Source: Burkholderiales bacterium
GTDB taxonomy: Bacteria; Pseudomonadota; Gammaproteobacteria; Burkholderiales; Ga0077523
Direction: 5' to 3'
Assembly (NCBI GenBank): GCA_022843925.1
Contig: JALHMS010000008.1
Location: 1-64,000 of the forward strand
DNA: 64,000 bases
Position 1 is the first letter of the stretch. Each line of letters opens with the position of its first letter. A program made the translations under genes and the position numbers. The notes beneath the pieces are model-generated. The model saw only the letters and a list, made by a program, of their open reading frames with translations, did not search any database and was not told where the DNA came from. Of this stretch, positions 6,201 to 10,339 are shown piece by piece.

Positions 6201-6388
6201 CGCGCCAGGTTCCGCGTGACGAGCGCCGACTCGGCGATGTACCCGGCGCGTTCGGTGCGCAGCGTCGTCGCCAGCACCAGGGCGAGCACCGTGATCGCGA
6301 GCCCGCCCAGCACGGGCAGCAGCACCGTGAGCCGGAGCGTGCTGCCGCGCGTCGCGGACGCTGCACCGGGCACCGGCCGGAGGCTCAC
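3299..6388 (-). CDS. dCache-PAS-GGDEF-EAL cyclic-di-GMP signalling protein
   Basis: This 1029-residue inner-membrane sensor is predicted to make and/or degrade cyclic di-GMP. Domains in order: membrane helix at about residues 17-42, an extracytoplasmic Cache-like sensor (about 45-295), a second helix (about 301-325), a PAS domain (340-460), a second PAS/PAC domain (465-580), GGDEF (590-755) and EAL (765-1015). The GGDEF motif is intact (RLGGDEF, about 669-675). The EAL domain keeps [18 protein letters not shown] and the KID/EGVET segments expected of active phosphodiesterases. I chose the GTG at 6388, which overlaps the ackA stop (GTGA); the 56 codons upstream in the track lie inside ackA. 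Coupling to acetate kinase suggests co-expression; a functional tie is inference. Confidence 0.9.
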
Positions 6389-7569
6389 GGTCGCCCCATC
6401 GCGAGGACGGACGCCACGTGGCGCGCGATCATGCCTTCCTCGTCGGTGGGGATCACCCAGGCGCGCACGCGGCTGTCGGGTTTCGTGATCCGCGGGCCGT
6501 GCGTCGCGTTCGCTGCAGGGTCCACGACGACCCCCAGCCACTCCGCGGCGCGGCACACCGCCTCGCGGATGCGGGCGCTGTGCTCACCGATGCCGGCCGT
6601 GAACACGAGCGCATCGACACCGCCCAGGGCGGCTGCGGCTGATCCGATCTCGCGGCCGATCCGGTAGACGAACAGATCGATCGCTGCTGCCGCGCGCGGA
6701 TCGGCGCTCGCCTCCAGCACCCGCATGTCGGAGGCGATGCCGGACACGCCGAGCAGCCCCGACTCGTGATAGAGCAGGTGCTCCACGCCGCGGACGTCCA
6801 TCCCGAACGCGTCCATGAGGTGCAGCACGACGCCTGGGTCGATCGCGCCGCTGCGCGTCCCCATCGGCAGCCCGTCCAGCGCCGTGAAGCCCATCGACGT
6901 CGCGACGCTGCGCCCGGCCGCCATCGCGCAGAGGCTCGCGCCGTTGCCGAGGTGCAGCACGATGGTCCGGCCGCGGTCGGCGTCGGGATCGACCTCCGCG
7001 AGACGCCCCGCGATCGATTCGTACGAGAGCCCGTGGAATCCGTAGCGGCACACGCCCCGATCCGTGATGCGGGCCGGCAGCGCGTAGGCCCGCGCCACCG
7101 CCGGCTGATCGTGATGGAACGCGGTGTCGAAGCAGGCCACCTGCGGGAGGTCGGGTGCCTGGGCAAGCAGAGCACGGATCGGCGCCAGGTTGTGGGGCTG
7201 ATGGAGCGGTGCGAGCGGGACGAGGGCCTCCAGCGCGGCGAGGACGCCGGCGTCGACGCGCACGGGCCCGACGAAGGACGAGCCGCCGTGGACCACCCGA
7301 TGGCCGATCCCTTCCAGCCCGCCCTCCGGCACGCGCGACAGCGCGAACGCGAGGGCGTGCGCGGTGGCGTCGTCGTGGCCGATGGCGGATGTCCAGCGCT
7401 TCTCGGCAATTGTGGTTCCATCGGCCTCCTTCGCCACGAAGTGCGGCGTCGCGGCGAGAGCGTCGATCTGGCCGTGGAGGAGCGTCCGCATGGCGGAACC
7501 GTCCCGACCGCAGAGCGAGAACTTCAGGCTGGAGGAACCGGCATTGAGGACGAGGATCGCGCTGCGCAT
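6385..7569 (-). CDS. ackA: Acetate kinase
   Basis: Acetate kinase interconverts acetate plus ATP with acetyl phosphate plus ADP and works with a phosphotransacetylase. The 394-residue protein has the usual length and the ASKHA-fold motifs: N-terminal [26 protein letters not shown], the phosphate-loop region [13 protein letters not shown] with RSVATSMG, and FTAGIGEH near the C-terminus. It lies downstream of a phosphotransacetylase-like gene on the same strand, with a 142-base gap holding a hairpin, and its stop overlaps the start of the GGDEF-EAL gene. In many betaproteobacteria this pair works in overflow metabolism or PHA-related acyl-CoA handling. Confidence 0.95.
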
Positions 7570-7598
7570 CGTCAGGCGGTCCCGGGCGGGATCAGCGA

Positions 7599-7624
7599 CC
7601 CGGCGACACGGCGGCGTCGCCGGG
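7599..7624 (-). terminator. Hairpin between phosphotransacetylase-like gene and ackA
   Basis: A 9-bp perfect stem CCCGGCGAC / GTCGCCGGG with an 8-base loop lies in the 142-base gap. It could be an intercistronic terminator or an attenuator that lowers ackA expression relative to the upstream gene. No T-run follows. Confidence 0.4.
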
Positions 7625-7711
7625 CCGAAGGGAGGGCGCGGCGGGGCGCACTTCGAGGGCAGCTTGCATCGGGTCGCCGCGCCTCAATGGCTGCACCGCA
7701 ACGGACGCACC

Positions 7712-8659
7712 TCAAGGCACCGGCGGCGCGCGGCCGTCGCGGCGGGCGCCGGCCAGGAGCGTGGCGAGGGCGCACGATGCGAGGCGCGAGACCACGGAAT
7801 CGGCGCGGCTCGTGAGCACGACCGGCACGCGTGCGCCGAGTACGATCCCCGCTGCGTCGGCGCCAGCGAGGAACGACAGGCTCTTCGCGAGCATGTTGCC
7901 GGCTTCGAGATCGGGAACGACGAGCACGTTGGCGTGGCCCGCGACGGTGGAGCGGATCTGCTTCACGCGGGCGGCCTCGGGATCGATCGCATTGTCGAGC
8001 GCGAGCGGGCCGTCGAGCAGGGCGCCGGTGATCTGGCCCCGGTCGGCCATCTTGCAGAGCGCGGCCGCCTCGATGGTGGAAGGCACGGCGGGGTTCACCG
8101 TCTCCATCGCGGAGAGGATCGCGACGCGCACCTCGGGAAAGCCGAGCGCGTGGGCGAGGTCGATGGCGTTCTGGACGATGTCGACCTTCTCGGCCAGGCT
8201 CGGTGCGATGTTCACGGCAGCGTCGGTGATGATGAGCGGTTCGCTCCGCCCGGGCACGTCCATCACGAAGCAGTGGCTCACCCGCCGCGCCGTGCGCAGC
8301 CCGGTGGTGCGATCGACCACCTCGGCCATCAGTTCGTCGGTGTGCAGGCTGCCCTTCATCAGCGCATCGACACGCCCGGCCCGCACCAGGGCCACGGCCT
8401 GCGCGGCGGAGGCATGGCTGTGCGGCGTGTCGATGATCTCGTACGCGTCGATGCCCACGCCGGCCTGCGCAGCCGCGGCGCGCATCCGGGCGACCGGACC
8501 CACGAGCACCGGCGCGATCAGGCCCTGCTGCGCCGCCTCGGCCACGGCGGCGATCGAACTCGCGTCGCACGGATGCGCCACGGCGGTGACGGCCGGCGGG
8601 AGTGTGCGGCAATGATCGAGCAGGCGATGGAACTGCGTGTGCGGGGACGGGGGGCTCAT
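7712..8659 (-). CDS. Phosphate acetyl/butyryl-transferase family protein
   Basis: The 315-residue protein belongs to the PTA/PTB family, which exchanges CoA for phosphate on short acyl groups. Family features visible are APVLVGP near residue 50, the DALMKGSLHTDELM segment, MDVPGRSEPLIITDAAVNIAP, VAILSAMETVNPAVPST and the C-terminal VPDLEAGNMLAKSLSF block. The length is that of short single-domain enzymes, like those fused to a MaoC hydratase domain elsewhere, but no such domain is present here. The ATG at 8659 overlaps the upstream DUF3429 stop (ATGA), and ackA follows downstream, giving an acyl-CoA/acyl-phosphate/acid module. Acyl-chain preference (acetyl or butyryl) is not resolvable. Confidence 0.88.
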   Translation of the reverse strand: MSPPSPHTQFHRLLDHCRTLPPAVTAVAHPCDASSIAAVAEAAQQGLIAPVLVGPVARMRAAAAQAGVGIDAYEIIDTPHSHASAAQAVALVRAGRVDALMKGSLHTDELMAEVVDRTTGLRTARRVSHCFVMDVPGRSEPLIITDAAVNIAPSLAEKVDIVQNAIDLAHALGFPEVRVAILSAMETVNPAVPSTIEAAALCKMADRGQITGALLDGPLALDNAIDPEAARVKQIRSTVAGHANVLVVPDLEAGNMLAKSLSFLAGADAAGIVLGARVPVVLTSRADSVVSRLASCALATLLAGARRDGRAPPVP

Positions 8660-9111
8660 CGGATGGCGGCCATGCCGAGGCAGGCGACGACGACGATCGT
8701 GAGACCCGCGCGGAGGCGCAGATACCAGCCCGGGATCGTGAAGCGGCCCGCCACCTGGCGATCCATCGAATAGTGGATGACGAACATCGCGCCGATGAGC
8801 GTCAGGCCCGACGATGGCGTGATCAGCAGGCCCACCCACGCCACCAGCGCGGGCACCACGCTCCAGCCCATGATGACCGCCCGTTCGCGGTCGGGGATGT
8901 CGCGGTGGAGCATCGCGATGCCCCAGTGCACGGCCCCGACGAACGAGAGGATCACCGCCGCGTACGTCCGCAACCACTCGAGGAGTGTCGGTCGGTACGC
9001 TTCCGGCAGCACCCACAGACCGCCCGACAGCAGCACGAAGGGCACGAGGCCACCGGCGCCGAGCCAGAGGGGGGCGGAAGGTACGGGCGAGGTCGGGGGA
9101 GGGCTCAGCAT
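8656..9111 (-). CDS. DUF3429 membrane protein
   Basis: This 151-residue protein is predicted to span the inner membrane about five times (APLWLGAGGLVPFVLLSGG, YAAVILSFVGAVHWGIAML, VIMGWSVVPALVAWVGLLI, LTLIGAMFVIHYSMDR and a last helix LTIVVVACLGMAAI). The FVGAVHWGIAM core is the hallmark of DUF3429, a family of unknown function. It starts 49 bases after the photolyase-like gene and its stop overlaps the next ATG. The start at 9111 follows the natural hydrophobic domain; the track extension of 97 codons runs antisense to other sequence and lacks support. Confidence 0.85.
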   Translation of the reverse strand: MLSPPPTSPVPSAPLWLGAGGLVPFVLLSGGLWVLPEAYRPTLLEWLRTYAAVILSFVGAVHWGIAMLHRDIPDRERAVIMGWSVVPALVAWVGLLITPSSGLTLIGAMFVIHYSMDRQVAGRFTIPGWYLRLRAGLTIVVVACLGMAAIR

Positions 9112-9160: not shown

Positions 9161-10339
9161 CTACCGCTGCGATGGTGACGATTCCGGATGCGGCCAGGCC
9201 GGCGCCACCTTGCCCCAGAAGGCGCTGAACGACCGGCACGGCGTGGCGGGGTCGGCCGTGAAGCGCGGCGCAGGATGTCGCACGGTCGCGACGCTTTGCG
9301 TCGCACCCGCGTACTCGGGTTCGTCGGTGCGCACCATCGCGACCGACGCCGCCTCGCGCAGCGCGGGTGCGAGGGTCGCGAGGTCTCCCCACCAGAGCAC
9401 ATCGGCGATCCGCGTCATCCCCCCGGTCACGAAGTCCCAGCGCTGCATCGACCAGGGAAAGCGCGCGTGGAAAGGCGCGTGGAACACGCCGATCGCCACG
9501 TCCGCGTCGTCGGGGCGGCGCAGCGACCAGGGATGCAGCAGCGCGATCCGCCGTCCGCGCACCATCGTTGCATCGATCGCCGGCCACGCGGTGGCCGCCG
9601 GGGGCCCGGCGAGGAGCGCGGGCATCGCGATCGGTGGCGAAGCGATCCGCTCCGGTCCGGCGTCCCCGCCGGTCCGCGCGTGCGCCTCCAACGTTTCGTA
9701 GTCGTGGTCGATCGCGGTGCCTGGGCTGGCGAGTGCCGGTGCATAGCGGGCCACGTTGGCTGCATCGAACAGATAGGGCTTCGCGGAGAAGGTGCCCGCG
9801 CACCACTGCCACGAGAGATGGTTGGACGGCAGGTCGCCATCGAGGAGATGTCCGTACATCCAGTCGGCGCCCACCCGCCAGTGGACCTTCCGCGTGTGCA
9901 CGACGTAAGAGGCGAGCCACATGCGGTGGTGGTTGTGGAGCCAGCCGTCCGCGTAGAGCTGACGGATGCCGGCATCGATGACCCGCACCCCCGTGCTCGC
10001 GGTGAGAACGTCCTCCGGCAGGGCCTGCGCATAGCGACCCGACCACACGGGGGTCCGGAGGTCGTCGAGGATCCCCTCGCCGGCATGGCGTCGGACGTGG
10101 TGGAAGAACTCCCGCCACGCGAATTCGTAGGTGAGCTTGTCGAGCGGGCCGAGCCCACGATGTTCCCGCAGATGGGCGACGATCTCGGGAAGGTCGACGA
10201 AGCCGTGCGTGATCCAGGGTGACAGGCGCGTGACCGCACCGTCGAGTGCGTTGCGGGTCCGCGCGTAGGCGCGGGGATCGATCTCGTCGATACGGGCGAG
10301 CGCCGCGGCGCGATCGGGTATCCAGTGGGCTGTCGTCAT
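9161..10339 (-). CDS. Photolyase/cryptochrome-like flavoprotein with apparently permuted domains
   Basis: The N-terminal 220 residues look like the FAD-binding catalytic domain of DNA photolyases: RLSPWITHG (38-46), WREFF (75-79), GWLHNHHRMWLASYVVH (132-148) and DGDLPSNHLSWQW (167-179). By eye the Asn at 173 and Trp at 177 match E. coli Asn378 and Trp382, next to the flavin. Normal photolyases begin with an alpha/beta antenna domain, which is absent here. Instead, residues about 262-345 (RRIALLHPWSL, VAIGVFHAPFHARFPWS, RWDFVTGGM, WWGDLATLAPAL) resemble that antenna domain. They are followed by SFSAFWGKVAP, like the FTPFW linker that normally precedes the FAD domain. The order therefore seems circularly permuted. 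The substrate may be UV-damaged DNA; this is inference. It is followed by DUF3429. Confidence 0.8.
   Translation of the reverse strand: MTTAHWIPDRAAALARIDEIDPRAYARTRNALDGAVTRLSPWITHGFVDLPEIVAHLREHRGLGPLDKLTYEFAWREFFHHVRRHAGEGILDDLRTPVWSGRYAQALPEDVLTASTGVRVIDAGIRQLYADGWLHNHHRMWLASYVVHTRKVHWRVGADWMYGHLLDGDLPSNHLSWQWCAGTFSAKPYLFDAANVARYAPALASPGTAIDHDYETLEAHARTGGDAGPERIASPPIAMPALLAGPPAATAWPAIDATMVRGRRIALLHPWSLRRPDDADVAIGVFHAPFHARFPWSMQRWDFVTGGMTRIADVLWWGDLATLAPALREAASVAMVRTDEPEYAGATQSVATVRHPAPRFTADPATPCRSFSAFWGKVAPAWPHPESSPSQR

What the first reader, a model, noticed from the sequence alone, without database searches (positions are those of the whole stretch)
9161..10339. Photolyase-like protein with circularly permuted domain order
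Seen in sequence: the FAD-binding photolyase domain comes first (WREFF, NHHRM, DGDLxxNxxxWQW) and the C-terminal 130 residues look like the normally N-terminal alpha/beta antenna domain, ending in SFSAFW, which resembles the FTPFW linker that normally joins antenna to FAD domain. Known: described photolyases and cryptochromes have antenna then FAD domain. Inference: a circular permutation, with the ancestral N- and C-termini fused. The flavin-adjacent Asn and Trp positions seem kept, so activity is plausible.
Basis: partly seen in the sequence, partly recalled or inferred. Interest (0 to 1): 0.72.

Follow-up and report, generated by a model that had tools for sequence, protein, structure and literature searches.

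The report
Reversed-order photolyase, already-known class
The gene encodes a light-driven DNA-repair enzyme whose two domains stand in the opposite order to the textbook one, but this reversed arrangement was already described in bacteria between 2020 and 2022, so this is a new betaproteobacterial member of a known class rather than a new invention.

Summary
The 392-aa protein (9161-10339, minus strand) carries the FAD domain first. A small alpha/beta domain follows (about residues 262-386) and ends in an SFSAFW helix. 27 contigs, nearly all betaproteobacterial, encode relatives; the 23 aligned share the order. The C-terminal domain is too diverged for a direct match: Pfam, direct profile-profile comparison and Foldseek against PDB all miss the photolyase antenna domain. 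Homology is supported through intermediates. Split and fused reversed-order relatives carry an alpha/beta part that matches canonical antennas (hhalign 97%) and also matches this family's C-terminus end to end (94%), far above shuffled controls.

The premise that described photolyases all have antenna-then-FAD order is wrong. Reversed order is published as NewPHL/SPL (Emmerich 2020, Xu 2021) and as cyanobacterial Phr4/Phr5, Phr6 and Phr7 (PMC9426592). In a FAD-domain tree all reversed-order proteins lie together behind one 100/100 branch. The window protein sits in a fused betaproteobacterial subclade without the Fe-S cysteines. CPD-repair, FAD-contact and Trp-dyad residues are kept, so it is most likely a functional CPD photolyase, probably acting on single-stranded DNA (inferred). 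Whether the order arose by circular permutation or by fusion of split genes is undecided.

The parts
9161..10339 (-). Whole gene: reversed-order photolyase (NewPHL/SPL/Phr4-6 group), 392 aa
   Evidence: ORF; Pfam FAD_binding_7; 27 related loci; AF2 model pLDDT 92.5, pTM 0.91; tree placement
9665..10318 (-). FAD/DNA-lesion-binding helical domain, about residues 8-225; E72, W75, N136, R139, M140, W154, D167, D169, N173, W177 and W179 equivalent to PhrB E274, W277, N341, R344, M345, W359, D372, D374, N378, W382 and W384
   Evidence: Alignment to 1dnp, 1owl, 1tez, 4u63 and 1iqr; residue counts across groups
9179..9556 (-). C-terminal alpha/beta domain, about residues 262-387, homologous by transitive evidence to the photolyase antenna (DNA_photolyase) domain
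   Evidence: AF2 strands and helices; hhalign chain: canonical antenna to Phr5-type 97%, Phr5-type to this domain 94%, no shuffle as high; direct comparison fails
9209..9226 (-). SFSAFW motif, residues 372-377, at the start of the final helix; counterpart of the F..FW / FTPFW element that ends the antenna domain
   Evidence: Collinear in the A2 to A4x alignment; S370 invariant and S372 nearly invariant in the family
8656..9111 (-). DUF3429 gene immediately downstream, a recurrent neighbour of reversed-order photolyases
   Evidence: Pfam PF11911 E=9.5e-37; within 1 kb in 18 of 56 reversed-order loci, near-duplicates included

Best explanation
The gene encodes a member of the reversed-order (inverted-topology) photolyase class known as NewPHL/SPL and, in cyanobacteria, as Phr4/Phr5, Phr6 and Phr7. 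The N-terminal helical domain binds FAD and the DNA lesion, and light-driven electron transfer from reduced FAD splits cyclobutane pyrimidine dimers. The C-terminal alpha/beta domain is a shortened, diverged relative of the domain that stands first in ordinary photolyases; it probably packs against and seals the FAD domain and may carry no antenna pigment. SHOWN here: domain order, conservation, kept catalytic and Trp-dyad residues, absence of the Fe-S cysteines, placement with the other reversed-order proteins. INFERRED: FAD binding, CPD repair, single-strand preference, sealing role, lack of antenna pigment.
For: FAD domain homologous to solved photolyases (E 1e-17 to 1e-20). E72, W75, N136, W154, N173, W177 and W179 kept in essentially all members. 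All 49 reversed-order rows lie behind one 100/100 branch. L099 carries the exact cysteine spacing (85, 3, 6) of published Synechococcus Phr4, which ties the collected clade to the published one. [quoted passage not shown] coli survival after UV-C. A third electron-relay Trp is not conserved at the position examined, as in the Trp dyad of D. shibae NewPHL.
Against: No published NewPHL/SPL sequence could be fetched by name, so the alpha group is called NewPHL-type by inference. The C-terminal domain matches the antenna only through intermediates; direct profile comparison (3.6%) and Foldseek fail. In E. coli carrying phr4/phr5 the UV-C protection did not differ between light and dark. No activity data exist for the beta subclade.
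Confidence: 0.8

Rival explanations
1. The C-terminal domain is an unrelated Rossmann-like domain fused to a stand-alone photolyase FAD domain, and the SFSAFW likeness is coincidence.
For: Foldseek of the domain alone returns only generic Rossmann-like proteins, none significant and no photolyase among the best 50; no PF00875 hit in 23 members; direct hhalign 3.6%.
Against: A2 to A4x 94% and A4x to canonical antenna 97%, each far above 150 column shuffles and the reversed alignment, and collinear over 123-126 columns. The same gene order FAD then alpha/beta recurs in split relatives, whose alpha/beta parts touch PF00875 in fused Deinococcus proteins (E about 1e-3).
Confidence: 0.1
2. The protein is a light sensor (cryptochrome-like) rather than a repair enzyme.
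For: The genome has two other photolyase-family genes, so repair could be covered elsewhere; no activity data for the beta subclade.
Against: Lesion-pocket residues E72, W75, M140 and W179 are kept across the subclade; a second photolyase-family gene lies beside some relatives, which suggests a repair context (L013, L015, L035, L119).
Confidence: 0.1
3. The reversed order arose not by circular permutation of one gene but by fusion of two separate neighbouring genes (FAD domain, then alpha/beta domain).
For: Split pairs in gamma genomes and in L099, and both split and fused forms in Deinococcus; published Synechococcus phr4/phr5 against fused Cyanobium phr6.
Against: The tree does not fix the direction; fused forms are spread over the alpha, beta, Bacteroidota and Deinococcus branches, so fission of a fused gene is equally possible.
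Confidence: 0.5

Closest known systems
NewPHL / SPL (Emmerich et al. 2020; Xu et al. 2021), e.g. Dinoroseobacter shibae A8LJA9
   Same: N-terminal FAD domain, C-terminal extra domain, no Fe-S cysteines, Trp dyad, CPD-pocket residues (relatives L033, L038, L072 and others used as stand-ins)
   Different: Separate branch (alpha group 100/99 on its own); the C-terminal domain of the alpha group (Z-domain type) does not match the window's domain directly, only both match the Phr5 type
Cyanobacterial Phr4/Phr5 and Phr6 (PMC9426592)
   Same: FAD then alpha/beta order; alpha/beta domain of the same type by profile comparison with Phr5-type proteins such as L099
   Different: Phr4/Phr6 carry four Fe-S cysteines, absent here; Phr4/Phr5 are two genes, here one
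Class I CPD photolyase (E. coli PhrB, 1DNP)
   Same: Homologous FAD domain with the same CPD-contact residues
   Different: Antenna domain first and longer; further sequence after the FAD core; the window protein lies across a long 100/100 branch

Membership tests
Reversed-order photolyases (NewPHL/SPL/Phr4-7) | FAD domain N-terminal, second domain C-terminal | tested here: met
   Pfam FAD_binding_7 at 72-196 of 392; AF2 model; same in the aligned relatives
Reversed-order photolyases (NewPHL/SPL/Phr4-7) | FAD domain groups with other reversed-order proteins, apart from canonical photolyases | tested here: met
   100/100 branch holding all 49 reversed-order rows; one member, L099, tied to published Phr4 by cysteine spacing
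NewPHL in the strict sense (alpha group, Z-domain) | Clusters with the characterised NewPHLs | tested here: inconclusive
   Window protein lies outside the alpha group; no characterised NewPHL sequence was at hand
NewPHL in the strict sense (alpha group, Z-domain) | CPD repair in single-stranded DNA | not testable with these tools
   Needs a biochemical assay
Phr4/Phr6 | Four Fe-S cysteines with spacing 85, 3, 6 | tested here: not met
   Present in L099, near-match in fused Deinococcus; absent from the window protein, whose FAD domain has a single Cys
Class I CPD photolyase | N-terminal PF00875 antenna domain | tested here: not met
   No PF00875 hit; FAD domain starts at about residue 8
Class I CPD photolyase | CPD-pocket residues E274, W277, N341, M345, W384 | tested here: met
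   E72, W75, N136, M140, W179
Any photolyase | Binds FAD and is photoreduced | not testable with these tools
   FAD-contact residues kept; binding not measured

The most novel reading that the evidence does not exclude
The betaproteobacterial group is a distinct subtype of reversed-order photolyase: Fe-S cluster absent, alpha/beta domain reduced until no antenna pigment can bind, working together with the neighbouring DUF3429 protein and possibly with a different substrate range.
Probability: 0.2. Interest if true: 0.4.

Novelty: new member of a known kind. Interest (0 to 1): 0.25.

Why it matters
It extends the reversed-order class to a broad, fused, Fe-S-free betaproteobacterial lineage. Split, fused, Fe-S and non-Fe-S relatives together give material for asking which domain order came first, since SPL proteins have been proposed as ancestral to all photolyases (Xu 2021, as cited in PMC9649867). 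The recurring DUF3429 neighbour is an unstudied lead.

Tried and rejected
Pfam, NCBIfam and PDB profile searches did not detect the C-terminal domain. Direct profile comparison with canonical antennas failed. Foldseek of the isolated C-terminal model found only non-significant Rossmann-like proteins; of the whole model, the top hits are photolyases and cryptochromes aligned over about 200-280 columns, consistent with the FAD domain; the viral library gave ordinary photolyases only. Single decoy segments scored against the C-terminal profile gave mixed ranks: Phr5-type and canonical single sequences often scored no better than decoys, so the homology claim rests on profile-profile comparison with shuffles. 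The decoy set for the Phr5-type profile contained at least one Phr5-type sequence, judged from its score. A paper search for 'photolyase' with 'circular permutation' found nothing relevant; the literature says 'inverted topology' or 'reverse domain order'. Emmerich 2020 and Xu 2021 are not held, so their content is taken from papers citing them.

Full report
OBSERVATION. FAD_binding_7 covers residues 72-196 (E=5.5e-25) and no other Pfam family matches. 27 related loci were found, nearly all betaproteobacterial, at 41-92% identity; 23 were aligned and share the architecture. Mean column identity is 50% over the whole protein and 36% over the C-terminal part. AlphaFold2 gives pLDDT 92.5 and pTM 0.91 with a compact alpha/beta domain at about 262-386; the domain folded alone gives pLDDT 89.9 and pTM 0.77 with nearly the same secondary structure.

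IS THE C-TERMINAL DOMAIN THE ANTENNA DOMAIN? Direct evidence is lacking: no PF00875 hit in any of 23 members, no PDB profile hit, hhalign against 26 canonical antennas 3.6%, and Foldseek against PDB finds no photolyase among the best 50. The link comes through relatives. In gamma genomes (L070, L071, L116) and in L099 the same two domains are two adjacent genes, FAD first, then an alpha/beta protein of about 140-160 aa. In Deinococcus they are fused in three plasmids and split in one. The alpha/beta part of these matches canonical antennas at 97% (score 70 against at most 23 in 150 column shuffles) and matches the window family's C-terminus at 94% across 123 columns including the final FxxFW helix (score 48 against at most 17). 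The C-terminal domain of the alpha NewPHL-type proteins matches the same intermediates at 76% (score 37 against at most 21). Fused Deinococcus C-termini also touch PF00875 at E about 1e-3. Homology is therefore well supported, but transitively.

PLACE IN THE FAMILY. A maximum-likelihood tree of 70 FAD domains puts all 49 reversed-order proteins on one side of a 100/100 branch of length 2.3, away from canonical class I-like proteins and from the second photolyases found beside some relatives. The window protein sits within a betaproteobacterial cluster that the tree mixes only with two Bacteroidota rows, at moderate support. The alpha NewPHL-type proteins form their own 100/99 group.

LITERATURE. 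PMC9426592 describes Phr4/Phr5 and Phr6 as having the reverse domain order, and Phr7 as an N-terminal FAD domain plus a short C-terminal 'Z-domain', citing Emmerich et al. [quoted passage not shown] The published Phr4 cysteine positions (169, 254, 257, 263) have spacings 85, 3, 6; L099 reproduces them exactly, which ties the clade collected here to the published one. The window protein lacks these cysteines.

MECHANISM. Positions equivalent to PhrB E274, W277, N341, M345, W359, N378, W382 and W384 are kept (the roles of the PhrB residues are from general knowledge). A third electron-relay Trp is not conserved at the one position examined (W99), in keeping with the Trp dyad reported for D. shibae NewPHL. 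The best-supported reading is a CPD photolyase using reduced FAD. Single-strand preference and a sealing role for the C-terminal domain are carried over from NewPHL (the sealing role from general knowledge) and were not tested. The alpha/beta domain is short (about 125 residues against about 160 in canonical antennas), so an antenna pigment is doubtful.

CONTEXT. A DUF3429 gene lies immediately downstream and recurs within 1 kb at 18 of 56 reversed-order loci in the fetched set, which includes some near-duplicate loci. Six loci have a COG3380-like oxidoreductase within 1.5 kb (the label is from general knowledge). A second photolyase-family gene lies next to the photolyase in L013, L015, L035 and L119. 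The host genome has two further photolyases with ordinary order.

CIRCULAR PERMUTATION? The order is settled; the route is not. Since split and fused states both occur in the FAD-then-alpha/beta order, the protein may descend from a fusion of split genes, and if SPLs are ancestral, as Xu et al. 2021 are cited as proposing, the ordinary order would be the derived one.

VERDICT. Real feature, correctly spotted; known class; new betaproteobacterial member.

Noticed in passing
window 8656-9111 (-); also L001, L002, L003, L004, L036, L071, L106, L107, L111, L122: A DUF3429 gene lies beside the reversed-order photolyase at 18 of 56 loci examined, across alpha, beta and gamma lineages; it also sits next to an ordinary photolyase in L079. 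No paper in the library mentions DUF3429 with photolyase.
   Followed up: partly
L013, L016, L017, L036, L070, L113: A COG3380-like (renalase-type) NAD(P)/FAD oxidoreductase gene lies within 1.5 kb of the photolyase at six loci.
   Followed up: partly
L070 1300-2615; L071 983-2298; L099; L116; L120 1890-3181: Split FAD and alpha/beta gene pairs, several overlapping by a few bases, in gamma genomes, L099 and Deinococcus sp. QL22: the Phr4/Phr5 arrangement outside cyanobacteria.
   Followed up: partly
L013 7195-8739; L015 6978-8618; L035 4046-5524; L119 3004-4578: A second photolyase-family gene, distant from class I in the tree, stands directly beside the reversed-order photolyase.
   Followed up: partly
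window 6385-7569 and 7572-8660 (-): By reading the sequence: an acetate kinase-like gene, then a phosphate acetyl/butyryltransferase-like gene, downstream on the same strand.
   Followed up: no
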